NCBI RefSeq assembly: GCF_024749285.1
Contig: NZ_CP087196.1
Coordinates: 4,526,001 to 4,590,000, forward strand
Origin: Pseudomonas sp. B21-015
GTDB taxonomy: Bacteria; Pseudomonadota; Gammaproteobacteria; Pseudomonadales; Pseudomonadaceae
DNA length: 64,000 nt
Reading direction: 5' to 3'
Both the position numbers and the translations under genes were made by a program. The notes under the pieces were generated by a model that was not told the DNA's origin, did no database searches, and saw only the letters and a program-made list of their open reading frames with translations. Below are positions 48,724 through 59,208 of the stretch, one piece after another. Positions within the stretch are counted from its first letter, which is position 1. Each line of letters opens with the position of its first letter.

Positions 48724-48763
48724 CTGCATCACTGCATCACTGCATCACTGCATCACTGCATCA
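48724..48763. repeat. Octanucleotide tandem repeat (CTGCATCA)x5
   Basis: Five exact copies of ctgcatca followed by ctgctgcgg. The last copy provides the TGA stop codon (minus strand) of the yceI remnant. Confidence 0.92.
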
Positions 48764-49322
48764 CTGCTGCGGCGTAACCATCTTGAACCGGATATTGATG
48801 TCGTCGGAAACCATGGTATCGGCATATTCACCTTCGCCGATCTTGAAATCGCTGCGTTTGAGCGTTAACTCACCGTCGAAGATGCCGATGGTGTTCTCGG
48901 CTTTCAGCAGGACCGGAACCGCTACATCACGGGTAACGCCCCTGAGCGTCAGTTTGCCGATGATCGTGTATTTGTTGTCGCCAAGCGCCTTCACAACGGT
49001 CGATTCAAAAGTCGCCACGGGATAGGCCGCCGAATCGAACCAGGCGGGCTTTTGCAGTTCCGTGTTGGCGTCACTGCTGCCGGCATCGATACTGTCGAGC
49101 TGGATGGTGAGCGATGCCCGGGCTGCCGCAGGGTTGGTCGTGTCGAAATCCAGCTTGGCTTCGAATACGCCAATCGTGCCGTATACCCGCGAGGTGAATT
49201 GGTTTTACGTAAAGGAGATCTTGCTCGCGGCTTGGTTGACTTGTTTCCGCTTGCGCGCAGGGCAAGTAGCCAACAGTCAGCACGACGGCCAGAACAGCTA
49301 ACCGCGGGAATCGAACATTCAT
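48761..49322 (-). pseudogene. YceI-family periplasmic protein, disrupted by frameshift and stop
   Basis: The minus strand starts with a good signal peptide (MNVRFPRLAVLAVVLTVGYL then PCAQAE). The frame must then shift to read VNQAASKISFT, where a TAA (about 49209-49211) interrupts, before continuing QFTSRVYGTIGVFEAKLDFD to SLTIQLDSIDAGSSDANTEL and on to the normal C-terminus RSDFKIGEGEYADTMVSDDI and MVTPQQ. YceI proteins are lipocalin-like isoprenoid binders. The body is well preserved, so inactivation is recent or one lesion is a sequencing error. The remaining open piece is 48761-49018. Confidence 0.8.
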
Positions 49323-49854: not shown

Positions 49855-50502
49855 CTAACATTGGCTCGCCACCGTCCGCGAAGAAATAGCGGCGTAGTCC
49901 TGTTGTTTCACTCGCTGCGTCAACACCAGCATGCTCAGGAAACCCAATGCGATCAGCACTGGATACGCCATCAACAGTTCGAACAGGGAGTATTTCCAGG
50001 CCAACGGCCGACCGACGCCCAGCATGGCCGCATACATCCAGGACACGGCCGACAGCGAGCCGCAGAACAGCGCGAGCATCCGTGCGCTGAACCCGAGATA
50101 GAGCAAGGAGCCTGCCTTTTGCAGCGCGGGCAATACCAGGCGATGCAACAAGATGCCGTTGTAGGTCAGCAGCATGACAATGATCACCTTGGCGTGAAGT
50201 TTCGGGTTCATGAAGTAGCTCATACCTTTTTCCAGGTAATCAATACCGATGACCGCGGCGCCCGTCACCCACAAGGCTATCAAAGCAACGATCACAGACT
50301 TCTGCAGACTTTCCATATGAGCATGATCGTGCTCAGTGAATGTTTTTCGCTTTAACAAATCTTTAACCATTGCAATATCACTGGTCAATACCAAACCAAT
50401 GGCCACACAACAAGACACTAAATGAATGTAAATAACGCCCAACCGCAAAAACTCCATACATTCTTTATTTTCGAGCAGGCTCATAATTGTATTTATCGCC
50501 AC
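49855..50502 (-). CDS. Uncharacterised multi-pass membrane protein
   Basis: A 215-residue protein from GTG 50502, which has TGGAG at 8 bases. ATG 50484 lacks a ribosome site. Five to six hydrophobic helices are seen: LGVIYIHLVSCCVAIGLVLT, SVIVALIALWVTGAAVIGID, VIIVMLLTYNGILLHRLVL, MLALFCGSLSAVSWMYAAML and SLFELLMAYPVLIALGFLSM. Histidines at the ends of the first and third helices hint at haem or metal binding, resembling CopD/DUF2214-type proteins, but this is weak. The base composition at its start is more AT-rich than its surroundings, suggesting transfer. Confidence 0.65.
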   Translation of the reverse strand: MAINTIMSLLENKECMEFLRLGVIYIHLVSCCVAIGLVLTSDIAMVKDLLKRKTFTEHDHAHMESLQKSVIVALIALWVTGAAVIGIDYLEKGMSYFMNPKLHAKVIIVMLLTYNGILLHRLVLPALQKAGSLLYLGFSARMLALFCGSLSAVSWMYAAMLGVGRPLAWKYSLFELLMAYPVLIALGFLSMLVLTQRVKQQDYAAISSRTVASQC

Positions 50503-50698
50503 GGTACTTTCTCCACCTTGTTCGATAGTACAGATCGACAACTAACAGGGCATTTAACTCTTCTAACCCCTGTGCGATCTTACTTTTATAAGAGATGCCA
50601 AATCGCAGACCTGACACTGCGTAGCCCATTGATTCACTTGGCAAACCAATGATCGACTTGTTTACTGCCTCCTGAATTTCAGATAAAAAAATCCCCAT
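50465..50698 (-). CDS. Possible small protein overlapping the membrane-protein start
   Basis: A 77-codon frame, MGIFLSEIQEAVNKSIIGLP to NYEPARK, overlapping the next gene by 38 bases. Its first 60 residues have a plausible mixed composition and AT-rich codons. However, the ATG has no ribosome site and a stop precedes it by two codons. No family recognised; it could be spurious. Confidence 0.3.
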   Translation of the reverse strand: MGIFLSEIQEAVNKSIIGLPSESMGYAVSGLRFGISYKSKIAQGLEELNALLVVDLYYRTRWRKYRGDKYNYEPARK

Positions 50699-51061
50699 TT
50701 GCAGTCACTGCATATGAGGTTCGTTTTCCACTTCTTTTCTACGATTGCTGGAGCAGATCATGGTGACGCGCTGAAGTATCAGAGGGTGTTACGCCTCGAA
50801 TGTTCATTTTTTAAGCAGACTACCGACAAACGGTTACTTCAGCGCAAATGATCTAAATCGACAATGAACCGATAACTTCTCCGTAAGCCGCCGGCTAACT
50901 GGCCCGCTTTAAATTAGATAAGCCTCAGACTCTTTCATTGGATCCATTAGTTGTTGCGTTACTTACGAAAAGTGCAATAGAGACCCGCTCGCATTTACCC
51001 CCATGCACGACTGAAACAGTCATACTTTTTCACGTCAGAAACTCGGGGACCCGCCCCCCCC
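50699..51061. other. Intergenic region, AT-rich, no gene seen
   Basis: 363 bases between two minus-strand units, with lower GC than neighbours. No open frame with a ribosome site and no clear hairpin terminator. A run of C residues (gacccgccccccc) precedes the histidine kinase stop codon. Confidence 0.4.
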
Positions 51062-52405
51062 TCAACCGTCGATCGCCGACGCGAGCGGGAGCCAGACGCA
51101 CACTTCGAAACCCTCTTGCCGACCTGTTGCAGGGGAGCTCAATTTCATTCTCGCGTTAACCCCCTGCACAATCGTTTTGGCAATCGCCAGGCCCAATCCT
51201 GAACCGCTGATCTCACTGTGACCTCGTACAAAGCGCTCGGTCAGGTGCTGCAACACTGGCGCCGGCACCACCGGCCCGCCATTGACTATCCGCAGTTGGG
51301 CCTGTTCGGTGAGGCTGACTTCGATCGGTTGCGCCGTCGCGCCATACTTCAGAGCGTTCTCAATCAGGTTGCGCAACAAGATGCCAAAAGCGTCCGGGTC
51401 AATGTTCGAGTACACGCTGGCCTGGTGTGGCAGTTGCAACTTGATGCGCTGGCCGCTGCGTTGGTTCCACTCATCGACGCCATGGGCCAACAACGGAATC
51501 AGGTCCTGAGGCGTTTCGGACAGCAGCCCACCGCCCTCGGCCTTCGCCAGTTGCATGAGTTTTTCCGACAGCCGCGCCAGCTCGCGCAAGGCGTTTTCGA
51601 TCTTCGCCGCACGCACTCGCAAAGGGCCTTCAGGCGCCTCCTGGTGCAAACGCTGGATCTGCGCGAGGGTCGCCGCCAGTGGCGTACGCAACTCATGAGC
51701 GCTGTTGGCGGTAAAGCTGCGCTCGGCTTCGAGGGCCTTGCGCAAGCGCTCCAGCAAGTGATTGACCGCCTCGGCCAACGGATCGATTTCTGCGGGCAGG
51801 CGGGCCACTTTGATCGGTGACAGATCACCCACACCACGCGCCTCGACCGCACGTCGATACGCCAACACGCTACGCAGGCTGATCCGCACGAACAACCAGG
51901 TGCCCAACAGGCTGACGGGAATCAGCGCCAACAGCGGCAACAACAAGGCAAACAAGGCTTCCCGCGCGGCTTCACGGCGATGATTCAGCGGCTCGGCGAT
52001 TTCAATGAACAGCGTCCCGCGCAATGCACTGGCGCCATACAAGCGGTACTTCTCAGAGGTCGAAAAACCCTCGGTCGGCTGTCGATTGAAGATCTTCGGG
52101 TTGGCATCGTGGGACTGCATCAGGATCTTGCCACTGGCATCGCGCACCAGGTACGTCAGGTATTCCTTGTGCATTTTCAACGTCGCAACGTGCTGAGCTT
52201 CACGGGGTTCCTCCCGGTTGCTGATTTCCAGCACGGCCAACGGCAAGATGCGTTGCGCGGTCTCTTCCAGTGCGCTGTCGAATGCCTCGTCCAACTCATG
52301 TTGCACCACCAGCCAGGCGCCGACGGTTGCGCCCAGCCAGAGCAACGTCATGCCCAAGGTCAAACCCAGGCCGAGACGTTTTTGCAGGCTCACGGAAGGC
52401 TTCAT
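51062..52405 (-). CDS. Sensor histidine kinase (QseC/PmrB-like)
   Basis: A 447-residue membrane kinase. The start MKPSVSLQKRLGLGLTLGMT overlaps the restored stop of the response regulator (ATGA). TM1 is about residues 12-33, a periplasmic sensor with a double-Cache-less short domain covers residues 35-145, and TM2 is about 150-174. After the HAMP linker the H-box is SFTANSAHELRTPLAATLAQ (phosphorylated H237), the N-box ILLRNLIENALKYG and the G-box GSGLGLAIAKTIV. The downstream divergent PepSY/DUF2271 genes are probable targets of the pair. Confidence 0.92.
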   Translation of the reverse strand: MKPSVSLQKRLGLGLTLGMTLLWLGATVGAWLVVQHELDEAFDSALEETAQRILPLAVLEISNREEPREAQHVATLKMHKEYLTYLVRDASGKILMQSHDANPKIFNRQPTEGFSTSEKYRLYGASALRGTLFIEIAEPLNHRREAAREALFALLLPLLALIPVSLLGTWLFVRISLRSVLAYRRAVEARGVGDLSPIKVARLPAEIDPLAEAVNHLLERLRKALEAERSFTANSAHELRTPLAATLAQIQRLHQEAPEGPLRVRAAKIENALRELARLSEKLMQLAKAEGGGLLSETPQDLIPLLAHGVDEWNQRSGQRIKLQLPHQASVYSNIDPDAFGILLRNLIENALKYGATAQPIEVSLTEQAQLRIVNGGPVVPAPVLQHLTERFVRGHSEISGSGLGLAIAKTIVQGVNARMKLSSPATGRQEGFEVCVWLPLASAIDG

Positions 52406-53062
52406 ACGGCCATCAACCGGTAGCCCATGCCGCGCACGGTTTCGATCAGATCGCGCCCCAGTTTTTTTACGCAGCCGGCTGATATAGACCTCGATGGTAT
52501 TGCTCTCGATTTCGGCACCGAAGGCATACAGCCGTTCTTCCAGCTGCGACTTGGACAACAGTGCGCTGGGGCGCTGCACAAACGCTTCGAACAGCGCCCA
52601 CTCACGCGCCGTCAGGTCCACGGTGGTGCCGGCCCGCTGCACGGTGCGGGCGTTCATGTCGACCTGCAAATCACCGAGTCTGATCTGCGGGTTGGGGTTG
52701 CCACTGTAACGTCGGGCCACCGCGGCCACACGGGCCGAGAGCTCAAACAGGTCGAACGGTTTGACCAGGTAATCATCGGCCCCGGCATTGAGGCCGGCGA
52801 TACGGTCGGAGATCTGATCCTGAGCGGTCAGAATGATCACCGGGGTCACGTCCCCTGCCGAGCGCTGCTGACGCAAAAAATCCAGCCCGCGCCCATCCGG
52901 CAGCATCAGGTCAAGCAGGATCAGGTCGTAAGGCGTGGTGCGTACGCTGTTGCGCGCATGGTCCAGGCGCTGCACCCAATCAACGGCGTGGCCATCATCG
53001 GCGATCTGCTCGCGCACCGCCTCCCCCAACCCAGGTGCGTCCTCGACCAATAAAACCCGCAT
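52402..53062 (-). pseudogene. OmpR-family response regulator with A7 frameshift near its C-terminus
   Basis: It starts MRVLLVEDAPGLGEAVREQI at 53062. The receiver has phospho-acceptor D51 (DLILLDLMLPDGRG) and K101 (DDYLVKPFDLFELSA). The winged-helix domain is intact to EVYISRLRKK (residue 200). There a run of seven A (52462-52468) shifts the frame. Removing one A restores LGRDLIETVRGMGYRLMAV and a stop overlapping the kinase ATG. As written, the frame instead continues through the kinase without a stop, giving a 666-residue regulator-kinase fusion (51062-53062). Only the last 19 residues, including the recognition wing, are lost. Could be a sequencing error, a real mutation or slippage. Confidence 0.88.
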
Positions 53063-53194
53063 CTGGTACCCCCCGTGATGGTTGTCGTGCAACACCTTAA
53101 TTGCCTTACCTGACGTCAATCTGAAGATTCAGCTGGTTGTCAGGAATACACCTTAGGGTATGCCACAGACGCCGACCTCGGCAGGAGACAGATC

Positions 53195-53518
53195 ATGAAA
53201 ACAGGTTTTATTGCCCATGCCGCGCTGTTGAGCCTGCTGCTCAGCGGTTACGCCCTGGCCGATGACGATTGCAGCGACCCGGTGAGCGACTGGCAACCGC
53301 GCGAAACCTTGCGCCAGCAGGTCGAGCGGCAATACGGCTGGAGCGTGCAGCGCATCAAGGTCGACGACGGTTGTTATGAGCTCAAGGGCCTGGACCGCAA
53401 AGGCAATGCCATCGAAGCCAGCTACTCACCGGCCTCGCTGCGCTTGCACACACTTGAGATTCATTTCCGCGACGACGGCGATGCCAGGGATTACCTCGGC
53501 AGCCCGCTCACCGAATGA
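53195..53518 (+). CDS. Periplasmic PepSY-domain protein
   Basis: A 107-residue protein with signal peptide MKTGFIAHAALLSLLLSGYALA. The mature part has SDWQPRETLRQQVERQYGWS and VQRIKVDDGCYELKGLDRKG, the PepSY_2 pattern, with two cysteines (DDCSD and DGCYE) able to form a disulfide. AGGAG precedes the start. PepSY proteins of this size commonly sit beside QseBC-like two-component genes and respond to metals or redox. It is the first gene of the divergent unit. Confidence 0.88.
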   Translation: MKTGFIAHAALLSLLLSGYALADDDCSDPVSDWQPRETLRQQVERQYGWSVQRIKVDDGCYELKGLDRKGNAIEASYSPASLRLHTLEIHFRDDGDARDYLGSPLTE

Positions 53519-53610
53519 CGCCTCACTTGTCGATGAATTTTTCCTGCGCTTCAGGTTGCTGTCAGCCAGCAGGTCCAGTCTCTCGACCTAACGATCAAAA
53601 GGACACCCTC

Positions 53611-54081
53611 ATGAAAAAGATCATCGCAGCCACCTGCCTCGCCAGCGCCATTGCCTTGCCGGGTCTGGCCCAGGCCCGTGAAGTGACCTTGACCACTCAG
53701 CTCAAGGACTACAGCGGCAATGATGCCTACCTGGCGATCTACGTCACCGACGCCAATGGCCAATACCAGAAAACCCTGTGGGTGGCCGGCAAGAAGGCCA
53801 AGTACTACAAGCACCTGGGCGACTGGGCCCGTGGCAGCGGGATGAACCCGAGCGAGTTTGACGGGGTCAGCGGCGCCAGTGTCGGCAGCGGGCGCACGCT
53901 CAAAGTCAGCGTCGAACTGGCAGACACCCTGATTGATGCCGGGTACCAGATCCGCATCGACAGTGCTGTCGAGGACAAACGCGACGCCCGCGCCGATGTC
54001 AGCGTTCCCCTGACCTCCAAAGGCTCAGGCAAGCCGGCGACCGGCAGCGCCTACGTCGACTCCTTTACTTACGATCTGTAG
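53611..54081 (+). CDS. DUF2271 periplasmic protein with flavinylation-like motif
   Basis: A 156-residue protein starting MKKIIAATCLASAIALPGLA with a Sec signal peptide ending AQA. The mature beta-rich domain (REVTLTTQLKDYSGNDAYLA, then YQKTLWVAGKKAKYYKHLGD) is DUF2271. Residues 84-90 read D-G-V-S-G-A-S, matching the D-x-x-[ST]-G-A-[ST] consensus at which ApbE links FMN to Thr/Ser; S90 would be the acceptor. The ApbE gene lies two genes downstream. Predicted role: periplasmic flavin electron carrier for the PepSY reductase. Confidence 0.85.
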   Translation: MKKIIAATCLASAIALPGLAQAREVTLTTQLKDYSGNDAYLAIYVTDANGQYQKTLWVAGKKAKYYKHLGDWARGSGMNPSEFDGVSGASVGSGRTLKVSVELADTLIDAGYQIRIDSAVEDKRDARADVSVPLTSKGSGKPATGSAYVDSFTYDL

Positions 54082-54106
54082 CACCCGCCATCTCTGGAGG
54101 CTGAAC

Positions 54107-56287
54107 ATGCTTCGCCAGTCCCATTCCCTGCCCGGCCTGATCGCTGCCCTGTTGGTCATGCTGTTGGCAATCAGCGGCGCGATCCTCTCGGTCAACCCGG
54201 CGCTGGAACGCTTGCACAGCACGTCCACGCCTGCCGGACAACTTAACGTCGGCCAACTGGCCGGGCGCGTTGCCAGCCACTTTTCGGGCGTAGAGCAGAT
54301 CCAGCGCACAGCGTCTGGCACGGTGATCGTCTACTACAACCAGAACGGCCAGGCCGGGGCGGAAAAAGTCGACCCAATGACCGGCCAAGGCCTCGCGCCC
54401 GACGAGCCATCCGCGTTCTCACGCAGGGTGAAAGAACTGCACCGCTCGCTGTTCCTTGGCACGCCGGGCCATGGCGTGTCGGGTGTCGGCGCGCTGTTCA
54501 TGCTGATGCTGTCGGTGTCCGGCGCGCTATTGCTGGCCCGGCGCCTGGGTGGCTGGCGCAACCTGCTGCGGCCGCTGCGGGGTACTTTCAGCCAGCGTTG
54601 GCATGCTGAAGTCGGGCGACTGGCCTTGCTGGGGCTGCTGCTGTCGGCATTGAGCGGGCTCTACATGTCCGCCACCACTTTTGGCTTTATCGCCGACGGC
54701 AGTCAGAGTGAGCCCGCCTTCCCCGCCCACGTCAGTGCCGGTCCGGCCTTGCCGGTGGCAAAGCTGCAAGCCTTGCAGGCCACCGACTTGAACGACCTGC
54801 GCGAGCTGGTCTACCCGAGCCCCGGCAACCCGCGCGATGTGTTTTCTCTGCGCACGGCCCAGGGCGACGGCTACGTGGACCAGGCCAGCGGCGCCTTGTT
54901 GTCCTATCAAGCCCACGACTCGATGCACAACCTCTACGAATTGATCTATCAATTGCACACCGGCGAAGGCCTCTGGTGGCTGGGCCTGCCGCTCGGGCTC
55001 TGCGCCCTCTGCGTACCGTTAATGAGCGTGACCGGCATTGTGTTGTGGTGGCGCCGCCGCAAGGCGAGCCCGACCCTCCGCCACAACAGCCCGGCCCACA
55101 CTGCTGACTGCGTGATTCTGGTGGGCAGTGAAAACAACAGCACCTGGGGCTTTGCAAAAACCTTGCATGACGCTTTGCACCTGGCGGGACACCGGGTGCA
55201 CAGCGCGACAATGAATCAATACGCCAACAAATACAGCAACGCCCAGCGGGTGTTCATCCTCACCGCGACCCACGGTGACGGCGATGCGCCGGCCTCGGCT
55301 TCGCAGTTTCTGGCGCAACTGGCAAAAACCGGCCTCAAGCCTGGGCTGCCCTTTGCCGTACTGGGCTTTGGTGATCGGCAGTTTACGCAGTTCTGTCAGT
55401 ACGCCCATCAGGTGCAGAACGCGATGTTGCAGGCCGGTGGCTCGCCATTACTGGGGCTGGAAGCCGTCAACCGCCAGTCCTCTCAGGAGTTTGCGCGCTG
55501 GGGCCACGCCTTGGGCGAAGTGCTCCAGCATGACCTGACACTGGTCCATACCCCGCAGCAACCACAGACCCATCCATTGCAGCTGACGGAGCGCATTGTC
55601 TACGGTGAACAGGTGAACGCACCGACCCACGTCTTGCGCTTCAAGGCACCCGGCAAGCTGCCGGACTTTCTGGCCGGTGACCTGGTCGGGATTTTGCCCC
55701 CGGGCAGCCCGATCCCACGCTTCTACTCGCTGGCCAGCGGCTCCCAGGACGGCGTGTTGGAAATCTGTGTACGCAAACACAACGGTGGCGTGTGCTCGGA
55801 ATTTCTCCATGGCCTGGACATCGGCGGGCCAATCGAAGCGTTTATCCAGCCCAACCCGCACTTTCGCCCGGCGTCGGGCACGCACCCGGTGATCCTCATC
55901 GGTGCCGGCACCGGCATCGGCCCCCTGGCGGGTTTTATCCGCAACAACACCGCTCGACACCCGATGCACTTGTATTGGGGCGGGCGTAACCCGGCCTCGG
56001 ATTTCCTTTATGAACCGCAGCTCAACCAATACTTGTCGGACCGCCGCCTCACGGCATTGCGTGCAGCCTTCTCTCAGGTTCAGGACCGCAGCTACGTGCA
56101 AGACCGGCTGATCAGCGATGCCCTGGCCTTGCGCCGACTGATTGAAAAAGGCGCCCAGGTGCTGGTGTGTGGCAGTCGCGAGATGGCCAAAGGCGTGATG
56201 CAGGCCCTCGATGAAGTGTTGGCGCCTCTCAACCTGAGCGTGCTGACCCTCAAGGCACAAGGACGCTACCGTGAAGACGTCTACTGA
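54107..56287 (+). CDS. PepSY-associated membrane flavoreductase (flavodoxin plus FNR modules)
   Basis: A 726-residue inner-membrane protein. Membrane helices at about 8-28, 125-145, 170-190 and 290-312 hold the PepSY_TM domain, with conserved histidines (KELHRSLFLGTPGHGVSGVG, YELIYQLHTGEGLWWLG) that may bind haem. A cytoplasmic flavodoxin domain follows (VILVGSENNSTWGFAKTLHD, ILTATHGDGDAPASASQF), then a ferredoxin-NADP-reductase module (RFYSLASGSQDGVLEICVRK, HPVILIGAGTGIGPLAGFIR, VLVCGSREMAKGVMQALDEV, ending GRYREDVY). It likely moves electrons from NADPH across the membrane. Confidence 0.92.
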   Translation: MLRQSHSLPGLIAALLVMLLAISGAILSVNPALERLHSTSTPAGQLNVGQLAGRVASHFSGVEQIQRTASGTVIVYYNQNGQAGAEKVDPMTGQGLAPDEPSAFSRRVKELHRSLFLGTPGHGVSGVGALFMLMLSVSGALLLARRLGGWRNLLRPLRGTFSQRWHAEVGRLALLGLLLSALSGLYMSATTFGFIADGSQSEPAFPAHVSAGPALPVAKLQALQATDLNDLRELVYPSPGNPRDVFSLRTAQGDGYVDQASGALLSYQAHDSMHNLYELIYQLHTGEGLWWLGLPLGLCALCVPLMSVTGIVLWWRRRKASPTLRHNSPAHTADCVILVGSENNSTWGFAKTLHDALHLAGHRVHSATMNQYANKYSNAQRVFILTATHGDGDAPASASQFLAQLAKTGLKPGLPFAVLGFGDRQFTQFCQYAHQVQNAMLQAGGSPLLGLEAVNRQSSQEFARWGHALGEVLQHDLTLVHTPQQPQTHPLQLTERIVYGEQVNAPTHVLRFKAPGKLPDFLAGDLVGILPPGSPIPRFYSLASGSQDGVLEICVRKHNGGVCSEFLHGLDIGGPIEAFIQPNPHFRPASGTHPVILIGAGTGIGPLAGFIRNNTARHPMHLYWGGRNPASDFLYEPQLNQYLSDRRLTALRAAFSQVQDRSYVQDRLISDALALRRLIEKGAQVLVCGSREMAKGVMQALDEVLAPLNLSVLTLKAQGRYREDVY

Positions 56288-57248
56288 GCTGCAACGCTAC
56301 AGCCTGAACGGCGAGACCATGGGCACCCGCTACACCGCCCTGTTCTATGCCGCTGCCGGGATTGATACCGACGCAGTGAACCACAGCCTGGCCTGCGCCG
56401 TGGCCCGGGTGGATCAGCAAATGTCCACCTGGAAACCCGACTCTGACCTCAATCGCCTCAACGCCGCCCCAGAACAGCAATGGGTGTCAGTGCCTGAAGA
56501 ACTGGCGACGGTGCTGTCTGCGGCACTGCGCGTCAGTCAGCAATCGGGCGGTGCCTTCGACATCGCGGTCGGTGATCTGGTTGACGCCTGGGGGTTCGGC
56601 CCCGGAGAACACGCGATCACAGCGCAGGCGCTCGCCACGCCGTCGTCGCACGCACGACTGTCCGCCAGCGCCGCGCTGGTGGTTGATGCGCAACGCAATC
56701 AGGTGCGCAAACGCGCACCACTGCAGCTTGATTTAAATGGCATCGCCAAAGGGTTTGGCGTGGATGAACTGGCCCGTTGCCTGGACGGATTGGGCATCAC
56801 CCGCTACCTGGTCGGTATCGATGGCGAGATGCGCGCCCGGGGCGTCAAACCTGATGGCCAGTGCTGGGCCGTGGCCCTGGAAAAGCCCCGCCGGGGCGTG
56901 CGCGAAGTCATGGGCGTGATGGAACTGGGTGATGCCGCTATCGCGACCTCCGGGGACTATCGACACTGGGTCGACGTCGCCGGTCAGTCCTATGCCCATA
57001 CCATGAACCCGGCCACCGGCGCGCCGTTGTGCAACCCGCTTGCCGCCGTCACCGTGGTGGCGTCCTCCTGCATGCTCGCCGATGCCTGGGCCACGGCATT
57101 GATGGTGCTGGGTGAAACCGCAGGTCCACGCCTGGCCCAGGAGCGCGGGATGGACGCCTTGTTCGTGCTGCGCGACGGCCAACAGTTCAAGGAAATATCC
57201 ATTGTCGGCGGCCAATTGCAGGCGCAGATTGAAACCCGTCCGATGTGA
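56271..57248 (+). CDS. apbE: FAD:protein FMN transferase
   Basis: A 325-residue ApbE-family enzyme that transfers FMN from FAD to Thr/Ser of target proteins. Motifs are GETMGTRYTALFYA, VDQQMSTWKPDSDLNRLN, LDLNGIAKGFGVDELARCL, AIATSGDYRHWVD and the metal-site YAHTMNPATGAPL, all intact. GTG 56271 lies inside the preceding gene (17-base overlap). No signal peptide or lipobox is present, unlike most ApbE with periplasmic targets, and a stop closely upstream excludes a longer N-terminus. It probably modifies the DUF2271 protein or the reductase. Confidence 0.93.
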   Translation: MKTSTELQRYSLNGETMGTRYTALFYAAAGIDTDAVNHSLACAVARVDQQMSTWKPDSDLNRLNAAPEQQWVSVPEELATVLSAALRVSQQSGGAFDIAVGDLVDAWGFGPGEHAITAQALATPSSHARLSASAALVVDAQRNQVRKRAPLQLDLNGIAKGFGVDELARCLDGLGITRYLVGIDGEMRARGVKPDGQCWAVALEKPRRGVREVMGVMELGDAAIATSGDYRHWVDVAGQSYAHTMNPATGAPLCNPLAAVTVVASSCMLADAWATALMVLGETAGPRLAQERGMDALFVLRDGQQFKEISIVGGQLQAQIETRPM

Positions 57249-57279
57249 ACCGCCCAATGACAGTGAGTCGCGATCAACC

Positions 57280-57981
57280 ATGAAATTCATGCACAGGCAC
57301 ACCGAGGCACACCGAAGCGATCGTATCGGCTGGCTGCGCGCCGCCGTCCTTGGGGCCAATGACGGGATAGTCTCCACCGCCAGCCTGCTGATTGGCGTTG
57401 CGGCCGCCAACGCCAGCCACGCCACGTTGCTGGTCACGGGGATGGCGGGGCTGATGGCCGGCGCCATGTCCATGGCTGCAGGCGAATACATTTCCGTGCA
57501 CTCCCAGGCCGATACCGAGCGCGCCGACTTGTCCCGCGAACGGGCCGAGTTAGCCAATGATCCGAAAGCCGAACACATCGAACTCGCCAACATCTACAGG
57601 CATCGTGGTGTCTCCCCCAAGTTGGCGCATCAGGTGGCCGATCAATTGATGGCCCATGACGCACTCGGCTCTCACGCTCGGGACGAATTGGGCATCAGCG
57701 CCACGCTCACCGCCAAACCCTTGCAAGCCGCCCTGGCCTCAGCCGCCAGCTTCGTGGTGGGTGCCGCATTACCGTTGGCGGTCACGTTTGTCGCGCCGGA
57801 GCACAACGCAGTGCCGTGGATATCGGGCATGTCATTGGTGTTTCTCGGGACGCTGGGCGCCATCGCCGCCAAGGCCGGCGGGGCCAATGTCATGACCGGC
57901 GCCTGGCGGGTGACATTCTGGGGGGCACTGGCCATGGGCATTACCGCACTGGTGGGGCACTTGTTTGGCGCCGTGGTCTAG
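57280..57981 (+). CDS. VIT1/CCC1-family iron or manganese transporter
   Basis: A 233-residue membrane protein. The start MKFMHRHTEAHRSDRIGWLR follows the ApbE stop by 31 bases, so it is likely in the same operon. LRAAVLGANDGIVSTASLLI (TM1 with the family Asp) and GLMAGAMSMAAGEYISVHSQ (TM2 with M-M-E metal-path residues) are the VIT signatures. The amphipathic metal-binding region (about residues 85-140) is short. Three more hydrophobic helices follow. Its presence connects the redox module with iron or manganese homeostasis. Confidence 0.92.
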   Translation: MKFMHRHTEAHRSDRIGWLRAAVLGANDGIVSTASLLIGVAAANASHATLLVTGMAGLMAGAMSMAAGEYISVHSQADTERADLSRERAELANDPKAEHIELANIYRHRGVSPKLAHQVADQLMAHDALGSHARDELGISATLTAKPLQAALASAASFVVGAALPLAVTFVAPEHNAVPWISGMSLVFLGTLGAIAAKAGGANVMTGAWRVTFWGALAMGITALVGHLFGAVV

Positions 57982-57998
57982 TTCAGGTTCCTTCGCAC

Positions 57999-58040
57999 AA
58001 AAAACAAAGGGCACCCGTTAATGAAAACGGGCGCCCTTTG
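57999..58040 (-). terminator. Terminator of the lost RTX gene (also usable from the + side)
   Basis: Read on the minus strand: caaagggcgcccgtttt-catt-aacgggtgccctttg followed by six T residues. Confidence 0.85.
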
Positions 58041-58052
58041 TACGCTGCCAAC

Positions 58053-58326
58053 CTATGCCACGCCGACAAAATCACTCGCGGTAAGGGCCACATGCCCGAC
58101 CAGATCAATCTGGAAATCGGCGCCATTGCCGCTGTTTACATTGCCCTCCACATAGGTGTGATCGACCCCGCCGACATTGACGAAGTGGTACTTCAATTGC
58201 GCCTGGTTGCTGAACTCGGTGCCGGCGCCGTTCCACTCGCCGAGGAAGGTGAAGTCCTGATTACCCGCGGAACCTGCGCCAAAGGTCCGGGCATCGATCG
58301 AGGTCAGATCGATGTGGTCGGAGCGT
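58053..58326 (-). pseudogene. C-terminal remnant of an RTX/M10 serralysin-type secreted protein
   Basis: Minus-strand frame: SDHIDLTSIDARTFGAGSAG, NQDFTFLGEWNGAGTEFSNQ, then HTYVEGNVNSGNGADFQIDL and VGHVALTASDFVGVA with stop at 58053. This is the M10 serralysin C-terminal/type I secretion signal region (F-G--FSG-AG-L/YV-GD-N-DG-ADF-I-L---L--SDF). The N-terminal repeats are gone; the sequence joins transposase coding sequence at about 58326. Its natural terminator survives directly downstream. Confidence 0.82.
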
Positions 58327-59208
58327 CATAGACGAAGGCATCGTTATTGAAACGCCCGTCAGCCTTGGCTCCCGAGGTCATCGGCTTGGGCACATAGGCG
58401 GTGATGCCGGCATCGTGACAAGCCAGGATTTGTTCACTTTTGAAGTAACCTCGGTCAGCCACTACCGACAACGTTTCTGACGCTATCGCCTCGCGGGCCT
58501 GCTTGGCCATTGAACTGAGTTGATCGCGGTCAGAACCGACGTTGGTCACCTCATGTGCAACGATCAAATGGTGCTGAGTATCGACCGCTGTCTGCACGTT
58601 GTAGCCGACGATTCCTGTGCCGCGCGTCATCATGGAACGGGCGTCTGGATCGGTCAGTGAGACCTGTTTATCCGGCGATTCGTTGAGCTGGATTTCGATC
58701 GCTTGAAGCTCCTTCATTTGCGTCTTCAGCTTGGCGATTTTCTCTTCCAGCCGCACGGCGCGGGGCTCAAAAGCTGTGGGTTCCTGCTGATCGGCAGCAT
58801 CGAGTGCCGCCAGGTAACGATTGATGCTCGATTCAATTTCTTCCATGCGCCGTTTCAGTTTGGCACTGGTGAAATTGCGGTCGCGGTTGTTGACTGCTTT
58901 GAATTTACTGCCATCCCGGTCAGCCACATCAGCTCGACGTTGCGCTGGGCTTCTCGCTCCAAACGTCGGCTCGACTGGATGCGGTTGAGATAACCGTAGA
59001 TGTAGATCTTCAGCAGGATCGCAGGGTGGTAAGCAGGCCGGCCAGTATCGGCTGGGATGGCACCTTCAAAACCCAGATTGACCAGGTCGAGTTCGTCGAC
59101 AAAGACGTCGACTACGCGCACCGGATTGATATCGCTGACGTAGTCGTCGAGGCTCTCGGGAAGTAAGGTGCCTTGACCTCGATGTTCACCTTGGATAAAG
59201 CGCTTCAT
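58320..59208 (-). pseudogene. IS1182-type transposase remnant with internal and C-terminal deletions
   Basis: Two overlapping frames. The first, 59208 to about 58915, starts MKRFIQGEHRGQGTLLPESL and continues to AQRNVELMWLT. The second, about 58915 to 58326, reads DGSKFKAVNNRDRNFTSAKL to VVADRGYFKSEQILACHDAG and stops matching at FVYDA. In intact relatives roughly 50-60 residues separate VELMWL from the DGSKFKAVN (first catalytic D) block, so there is an internal out-of-frame deletion, and the C-terminal third with the catalytic Glu is missing. It is clearly a different element from the IS at 43669. The upstream IS end may be near 59265 (gcgtttttacacactctggg). Confidence 0.82.

What the first reader, a model, noticed from the sequence alone, without database searches (positions are those of the whole stretch)
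53195..57981. Candidate flavinylated periplasmic electron-transfer and metal module (PepSY, DUF2271, PepSY-flavoreductase, ApbE, VIT)
Five same-strand genes, tightly spaced, combine an exported PepSY protein, an exported DUF2271 protein, a membrane PepSY protein carrying flavodoxin and NADPH-reductase domains, an FMN transferase and a VIT-type Fe/Mn transporter, all divergent from a two-component system. The combination suggests transfer of electrons from NADPH to a periplasmic flavoprotein, perhaps for metal reduction before or after transport. I do not know an experimentally described system with this exact set.
Basis: partly seen in the sequence, partly recalled or inferred. Interest (0 to 1): 0.75.

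Follow-up and report, generated by a model that had tools for sequence, protein, structure and literature searches.

The report
Signal-controlled periplasmic flavin electron-transfer cassette
A Pseudomonas gene cluster that probably carries electrons from inside the cell to a flavin-bearing protein beyond the inner membrane is of a known kind, but it belongs to a distinct, partly plasmid-borne branch that usually comes with its own sensor-regulator pair and a shared DNA switch, most likely for handling metals such as iron.

Summary
As a family set they are not new: Méheust et al. 2021 (PMC8238504) catalogued PepSY-like clusters with DUF2271 (2833), a NAD-binding domain (1077) or VIT1 (167), and showed that a DUF2271 protein is flavinylated.

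What I did not find in print (ten searches) is the branch. Its DUF2271 parts from the ordinary kind on a 100/100 branch. In Pseudomonas, Rhodobacterales, Marinobacter and on plasmids it usually stands divergent from one two-component system and has a direct repeat, TTCAG-N6-GTCAG. In the window the repeat precedes the regulator, PepSY_2 and DUF2271: 3 of 19 copies in the 6.59-Mb genome lie within 456 bp. In 40 fresh loci it was found in 38, in ordinary DUF2271 loci in 3 of 54.

Best reading: the two-component system switches on an NADPH-to-periplasm electron chain that reduces a metal, probably iron, alongside metal export. Signal, acceptor and direction are unproven. Against: several Burkholderiales keep the cluster without regulator or repeat, and this strain's regulator gene runs, shifted, into the kinase.

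The parts
53195..53518 (+). Small exported PepSY_2 protein, 107 aa, two conserved Cys (C26, C60); possible kinase modulator or metal binder
   Evidence: conservation; model pLDDT 80.7
53611..54081 (+). DUF2271 protein, 156 aa, Sec-type leader by eye, predicted covalent-FMN carrier; motif SGAS at residues 87-90 (53869-53880)
   Evidence: G88, A89, S90 invariant in 14 of 14 rows
54107..56287 (+). PepSY_TM membrane part fused to flavodoxin and FAD/NAD(P) reductase domains, 726 aa
   Evidence: H6, H112, H166, H284 invariant in 16 of 16 rows; FoxB 7abw match
56271..57248 (+). ApbE flavin transferase without leader peptide, 325 aa, GTG start inside the end of the reductase gene
57280..57981 (+). VIT1-family Fe/Mn transporter, 233 aa, only copy in the genome
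51062..53119 (-). Two-component system: response regulator (towards 53.1 kb) and kinase (about 51065-52405) read as one ORF because of a frame shift near the end of the regulator
53110..53125 (-). Predicted regulator box TTCAG-N6-GTCAG towards the regulator gene; -10-like TAAGGT at 53099-53094
   Evidence: hexamer read
53128..53143 (+). Predicted regulator box before PepSY_2; -10-like TAGGGT at 53154-53159
   Evidence: hexamer read
53550..53565 (+). Predicted regulator box before DUF2271; -10-like CAGTCT at 53576-53581
   Evidence: hexamer read

Best explanation
The cluster is an inducible branch of the PepSY-like flavinylated electron-transfer systems. The response regulator of the divergent two-component system binds TTCAG-N6-GTCAG boxes and activates its own gene, PepSY_2, and the DUF2271-reductase-ApbE-VIT genes (inferred from conservation). 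NADPH reduces the FAD and FMN domains of the fused reductase; electrons cross the membrane through two hemes held by four His and reduce FMN that ApbE has bound to the SGAS motif of the exported DUF2271 (inferred from homologues; flavinylation was shown for another DUF2271). DUF2271 passes the electrons to a periplasmic acceptor, most likely Fe(III) or another oxidised metal, in a response to metal in the envelope, while VIT and, in some relatives, a P1B ATPase move metal out of the cytosol. My separate estimates: electron route 0.85; control by this two-component system in relatives with an intact one 0.8; metal as acceptor 0.55; excess rather than uptake 0.5.
For: Electron route: domains, four invariant His, FoxB match E 3.7e-7, diflavin-reductase folds, SGAS motif. 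Control: box in 48 of 48 Pseudomonas loci with the two-component system, window included; 38 of 40 fresh loci against 3 of 54 ordinary ones; 106 of 109 loci with the two-component system and 11 of 30 without; boxes on two of three plasmid or megaplasmid loci examined. Metal: VIT in 35 of 56 Pseudomonas loci counted, 4 of 13, 16 of 40 fresh, 0 of 54 ordinary, in several arrangements; P1B ATPase with TPCP in 11 of 40 fresh loci, 10 of these with VIT; Ferric_reduct proteins in some relatives. Excess rather than starvation: no Fur box above shuffles, export-type transporter families.
Against: No experiment on this branch was found. VIT is missing from many loci, so metal transport is not obligatory. 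15 of 32 named non-Pseudomonas loci counted have neither two-component system nor box, and C. metallidurans CH34 has the system but no box. The kinase lacks a conserved ExxE. A leaderless ApbE with an exported substrate does not fit simple periplasmic flavinylation. In the window strain the regulator frame is shifted.
Confidence: 0.5

Rival explanations
1. Assimilatory ferric reductase: the chain reduces Fe(III) or ferrisiderophores so that Fe2+ can enter, with VIT as importer, as proposed in PMC8238504.
For: FoxB-type PepSY_TM proteins are ferrisiderophore reductases (PMC13038864, passages); ordinary DUF2271/PepSY clusters are Fur targets and the Caulobacter one supports growth with EDTA (PMC8238504; PMC12004947).
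Against: Those are of the ordinary type. Here no Fur box above shuffles, an own two-component system, and transporter families listed as efflux. I did not test for TonB receptors beside the cassette.
Confidence: 0.25
2. Periplasmic repair or oxidative-stress reductase: electrons feed repair of oxidised envelope proteins, in the manner of MsrPQ with its own two-component regulation (recalled).
For: Ferric_reduct-type (MsrQ-like) proteins stand in some relatives; an own two-component system.
Against: No MsrP-like gene was seen among the products annotated on the two plasmid islands read; the ORFs of the other loci were not searched for it. VIT and P1B ATPases point to metals.
Confidence: 0.12
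3. PepSY_2 belongs to the electron-transfer or metal side of the cassette and is not a modulator of the kinase.
For: 14 of 32 named non-Pseudomonas loci counted keep PepSY_2 before DUF2271 without this two-component system, in some with overlapping stop and start codons (L265, L269, L281); 11 of 48 Pseudomonas loci keep the two-component system without PepSY_2.
Against: PepSY_2 is with the two-component system in 97 of 109 loci and in 15 of 30 without (loci related). DbfQ is a small PepSY protein that acts on the neighbouring kinase, and PA2658 is predicted to bind BqsS (PMC12714742, passages).
Confidence: 0.45
4. The repeat is a site for another factor and the linkage to the two-component system is incidental.
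For: Seven of 9 Pseudomonas loci without the two-component system still have TTCAG-N6-TTCAG, and no kinase orthologue at 1e-60 was found in 11 of 11 such genomes.
Against: Presence of the box follows the two-component system across families, one copy points at the regulator gene itself, and the 11-bp direct repeat suits OmpR-type regulators (recalled).
Confidence: 0.12

Closest known systems
PepSY-like flavinylation gene clusters (Méheust et al. 2021, PMC8238504; passages)
   Same: PepSY_TM protein with DUF2271 and ApbE; NAD-binding and VIT1 variants counted there
   Different: This branch has its own DUF2271 clade, usually a divergent two-component system with a shared box, and PepSY_2; the passages read do not mention these, and the supplementary table was not readable
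FoxB and other PepSY_TM ferrisiderophore reductases (7abw; PMC11334425, PMC13038864; passages)
   Same: Four-His PepSY_TM part, sequence match
   Different: Fused here to a diflavin NADPH-type reductase and paired with DUF2271
DbfQRS module of Vibrio cholerae; PA2658/BqsRS (PMC12714742, passages)
   Same: Small exported PepSY protein beside an OmpR-type two-component system
   Different: Here the PepSY gene is joined to an electron-transfer cassette and can occur without the two-component system; no binding test
Fur-controlled Caulobacter cluster CCNA_03155-03159 (PMC12004947, passages)
   Same: DUF2271, PepSY membrane protein, flavin-dependent reductase
   Different: DUF4198 and Fur control there; two-component system and box here
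VIT/CCC1 transporters and MbfA (6iu3; PMC7762939, passages)
   Same: VIT1 domain; E 6.1e-18 to EgVIT1
   Different: Substrate and direction untested here

Membership tests
PepSY-like flavinylation system | PepSY_TM protein encoded in a flavinylation-associated gene cluster (ApbE, FMN-binding domain, DUF2271 or DUF3570) | tested here: met
PepSY-like flavinylation system | [S/T]GA[S/T] motif in the DUF2271 substrate | tested here: met
   SGAS in the window, [S/T]GAS in 14 of 14 rows
PepSY-like flavinylation system | Covalent FMN on DUF2271 | not testable with these tools
   Needs expression and mass spectrometry
PepSY_TM di-heme reductase (FoxB-like) | Four conserved heme-ligand His in the membrane part | tested here: met
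   H6, H112, H166, H284 invariant in 16 of 16; FoxB profile match, whose printed alignments cover H6, H112 and H284 but not H166
PepSY_TM di-heme reductase (FoxB-like) | Bound heme and metal reduction | not testable with these tools
   Needs biochemistry
DbfQRS-like module | Small PepSY protein within four genes of a kinase or regulator | tested here: met
DbfQRS-like module | PepSY protein and two-component system depend on each other across genomes (my criterion) | tested here: inconclusive
   97 of 109 with, 15 of 30 without the two-component system
DbfQRS-like module | Binding of the PepSY protein to the kinase sensor domain | not tested
   Single-chain prediction only was offered
BqsS/PmrB-type iron-sensing kinase | ExxE motif in the periplasmic domain | tested here: not met
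   No ExxE among columns conserved at 90% or more in 59 kinases; the window itself has EPRE, not kept in relatives
Fur regulon | Fur box in the control region | tested here: not met
   Best 9 of 19 in both gaps; 289 and 262 of 300 shuffles do as well
VIT transporter | VIT1 domain and homology to EgVIT1 | tested here: met
VIT transporter | Fe2+/Mn2+ movement out of the cytosol | not testable with these tools
   Needs transport or metal-content assays

The most novel reading that the evidence does not exclude
A horizontally moving regulon in which a DbfQRS-like two-component system senses metal or redox stress in the envelope and, through one conserved box, switches on a complete NADPH-to-periplasm flavin wire together with metal exporters, so that metal pumped out is kept reduced or recycled; the carrier is flavinylated in the cytosol by a leaderless ApbE before export, a step that the passages I read do not describe for exported substrates.
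Probability: 0.2. Interest if true: 0.75.

Novelty: new variant of a known kind. Interest (0 to 1): 0.5.

Why it matters
PepSY/DUF2271 systems are common, but what most of them reduce, and when, is unknown. A branch with a dedicated sensor, a defined box and linked metal transporters gives a handle: reporter strains with the box would reveal the signal, and with it the likely acceptor. Its place on plasmids predicted to be conjugative, in marine and enteric bacteria, suggests an accessory trait under selection. The leaderless ApbE with an exported substrate makes a second question testable: where flavinylation takes place.

Tried and rejected
Rejected: Fur control (no box above shuffles); a conserved ExxE iron-sensing motif in the kinase; a known RNA element in 50500-58700 (no Rfam match at gathering score). 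Little gained: the fold search with the PepSY_2 model (no match at E 0.001, best 0.065; the PepSY-type structures YpmB and YpeB only among weak matches); the fold search with the reductase model (mean pLDDT 74.2, pTM 0.46), whose 50 rows shown are diflavin reductases, with no FoxB among them; the promoter scan (1 found, 1.1 expected). A strict tie between PepSY_2 and the two-component system was dropped. A TTAAG-N6-ATMAG variant before PepSY_2 in Lysobacter/Thermomonas loci was seen after the fact and is not counted as support.

Papers. Passages only: PMC8238504 (also outline and abstract), PMC11334425, PMC12004947, PMC12714742, PMC12666569, PMC13038864, PMC12052999, PMC7762939, PMC4932525, PMC10719396, PMC4176598, PMC12817903. 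PMC3751524 and PMC7190382: listing only. The ten searches listed no paper that I recognised as describing a two-component system controlling a DUF2271 cassette; most subscription journals are not held and supplementary files could not be opened.
Full report
OBSERVATION. The reductase joins a PepSY_TM membrane part to flavodoxin and CysJ/P450-reductase-like domains. The host is a Pseudomonas: the nearest named DUF2271 genes, up to 100% identical, are in P. mucoides, P. brassicacearum and others. VIT occurs once in the genome. ApbE occurs twice; the second has a lipoprotein-like start.

LINKAGE. DUF2271 of this type is in 57 of 398 Pseudomonas genomes, window included. I fetched the 56 others, plus one Pseudomonas locus (L092) whose DUF2271 is of the ordinary type. 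In the 56, DUF2271, reductase and ApbE are together in 56, the two-component system in 47, PepSY_2 in 36 (tblastn). VIT is in 35 of 56 loci counted, window included. A phylum-wide sample had DUF2271 matches in 70 of 398 genomes. I fetched the 67 places over the Pfam cut-off other than the window's own. Thirteen (L142-L154) are of the window's type: two-component system in 11, PepSY_2 in 10, reductase in 12, ApbE in 11, VIT in 4. The other 54 are the ordinary type: regulator and kinase of this kind above 200 bits in 0, VIT in 0.

TWO CLADES. In a tree of 73 DUF2271 rows, the 52 of the window's type and 21 ordinary ones are divided by one branch with 100/100 support. The 21 are those of 49 ordinary loci that a motif rule picked; the bootstrap had not fully settled; two rows of the window's type (L218, L219) have long branches.

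THE BOX. Aligning the stretch between regulator and next gene showed a conserved direct repeat, TTCAG-N6-GTCAG. The window has three exact copies: 53110-53125 (minus), 53128-53143 and 53550-53565, each followed after 10 nt by a -10-like hexamer (read). The genome has 19 exact copies; the pattern read backwards has 7. I did not examine the 16 other copies. With any base before the second TCAG, 48 of 48 Pseudomonas loci with the two-component system (window included) have a box; of the 9 without it, 7 have TTCAG-N6-TTCAG and 2 none. The 13 other loci of the phylum sample have a box each, two of them without the two-component system.

TEST ON FRESH LOCI. I then searched 292 genomes of the order of G682; 46 had a match at 1e-15, at 53 places. 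I take the order to be Rhodobacterales, because DUF2271 of L182 is identical over 87% of its length to a Roseovarius indicus plasmid gene. Seven of the 46 genomes were in the earlier set. Of the 46 places in the others, 41 were fetched, in 40 regions, and 5 left out. In the 40: box within -3000 to +300 of DUF2271 in 38, two-component system in 34, PepSY_2 in 36, reductase in 40, ApbE in 38, VIT in 16; some loci are cut by contig ends. There were 95 boxes in 130.5 kb near DUF2271 and 9 in 404.8 kb elsewhere. Ordinary loci had a box in 3 of 54, in a wider window (6.5 kb) set at fixed locus coordinates, which misplaces L094. Over four sets (139 loci counted; 9 dropped for short upstream sequence; the Pseudomonas loci of the named set, L220-L256, and five more Pseudomonadaceae left out by me as likely duplicates or same genus), the box is in 106 of 109 loci with the two-component system and 11 of 30 without. 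Related loci are not independent, so the Fisher p of 5e-13 overstates the case.

RESULTS AGAINST A SIMPLE STORY. Of 32 named non-Pseudomonas loci counted, 15 lack this two-component system and the box; 14 of them keep PepSY_2. Most are Burkholderiales such as Janthinobacterium, Massilia, Rugamonas and Rhodoferax; L277 is a Thermomonas MAG, and L259 has a different two-component system nearby. Eleven Pseudomonas loci keep the two-component system without PepSY_2. So PepSY_2 is not simply the partner of the kinase. In 11 of 11 genomes without the local two-component system no kinase orthologue reached 1e-60, while the own genome rang; the related repeat there must be read by something else or be a relic. 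Three Lysobacter/Thermomonas loci have the two-component system but not the exact box. C. metallidurans CH34 has cassette and two-component system, but no box even with a relaxed pattern.

EXTRA GENES IN RELATIVES. Examples read: Ferric_reduct proteins with or without FAD/NAD domains (L149, L150, L182), cytochrome b561 (L146, L195), a second PepSY_2 (L147, L182). A P1B ATPase with TPCP is in 11 of 40 fresh loci (10 with VIT), 1 of 13 phylum-sample loci (with VIT) and 1 of 57 Pseudomonas loci; in L182 and L143 it stands between ApbE and VIT and matches the NCBIfam heavy-metal P-type subfamily. That TPC marks P1B-5 is recalled; the P1B-5 enzyme Nia carries Ni2+ and Fe2+ (PMC4932525, passages). 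PMC7762939 (passages) lists P1B ATPases and the VIT-like MbfA as iron efflux proteins. This points to export, against the import suggested for VIT1 in PMC8238504.

MOBILITY. DUF2271 of this type matches 96 plasmid records, 71 predicted conjugative; 38 are Pseudosulfitobacter plasmids, many of nearly the same size. A Roseovarius plasmid carries kinase, regulator, PepSY, ferredoxin reductase, PepSY, DUF2271, PepSY reductase, ApbE, P-type ATPase and VIT in a row. A Citrobacter and a Marinobacter plasmid carry islands with the same gene order, with a ferric reductase-like gene and VIT but no annotated ApbE. The Citrobacter and Roseovarius islands have boxes before the regulator and before the first gene on the other side.

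MECHANISM. By homology only: NADPH to FAD to FMN in the fused reductase; two hemes held by four His; SGAS in the exported DUF2271, the motif shown to be flavinylated in another DUF2271 (PMC8238504). Inferred: acceptor, signal and purpose. A puzzle: the cassette ApbE has no leader by a hydropathy scan in 56 of 57 Pseudomonas loci, 45 of 45 window-type loci elsewhere that could be scored and 26 of 26 named ones; but 17 of 18 scorable ordinary loci look the same, so this does not mark the branch. The ApbE review (PMC12052999, passages) describes secreted ApbEs for secreted targets and cytosolic ones for cytosolic targets. Either DUF2271 is flavinylated before export or the second, lipoprotein-like ApbE does it.

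PRIOR KNOWLEDGE. PMC8238504 reports 3220 PepSY-like clusters, 2833 with DUF2271, 1077 PepSY genes with a NAD-binding domain, 167 clusters with VIT1 (passages): the gene set is known. A small PepSY protein beside a two-component system is known as a pattern (DbfQRS, PMC12714742, passages). I did not find the two joined through a conserved box in my ten searches.

VERDICT. A real, conserved system; a new variant of a known kind. Its interest lies in the sensor and box, which make signal and function testable, and not in the gene set.

Noticed in passing
window 51062-53119, minus: Regulator and kinase run together in one ORF by a frame shift near the end of the regulator; intact separate genes exist in relatives.
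   Followed up: partly
window 48761-49322, minus: A YceI-like gene also looks split: an 85-aa ORF matches only the second half of the YceI profile and a leader-bearing ORF precedes it in another frame. With the regulator and the transposase this hints at base errors in the assembly.
   Followed up: no
window 58304-59208, minus: Transposase domains DDE_Tnp_1 and DUF772 in two overlapping ORFs just downstream of VIT, like a broken insertion sequence.
   Followed up: no
window 58004-58041: Strong 16-pair terminator-like stem right after VIT, scored for the minus strand.
   Followed up: no
L060, L061, L086, L088-L091, L144, L148: Loci without the two-component system keep a TTCAG-N6-TTCAG repeat near DUF2271, although no kinase orthologue was found in those genomes.
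   Followed up: partly
L276, L278, L280 upstream of PepSY_2: Repeat of the same spacing with TTAAG half-sites (TTAAG-N6-ATMAG), as if regulator and site had changed together.
   Followed up: no
L093-L141 (ordinary DUF2271 loci): ApbE beside ordinary DUF2271 also lacks an evident leader in 17 of 18 loci that could be scored.
   Followed up: no
L304, L306: Islands of the same gene order, with DUF6448 and AraC-family genes beside the kinase, on a Citrobacter and a Marinobacter plasmid.
   Followed up: no
L192: A window-type locus with two P-type ATPases, one CopA-like, and a di-heme peroxidase-type gene near DUF2271.
   Followed up: no
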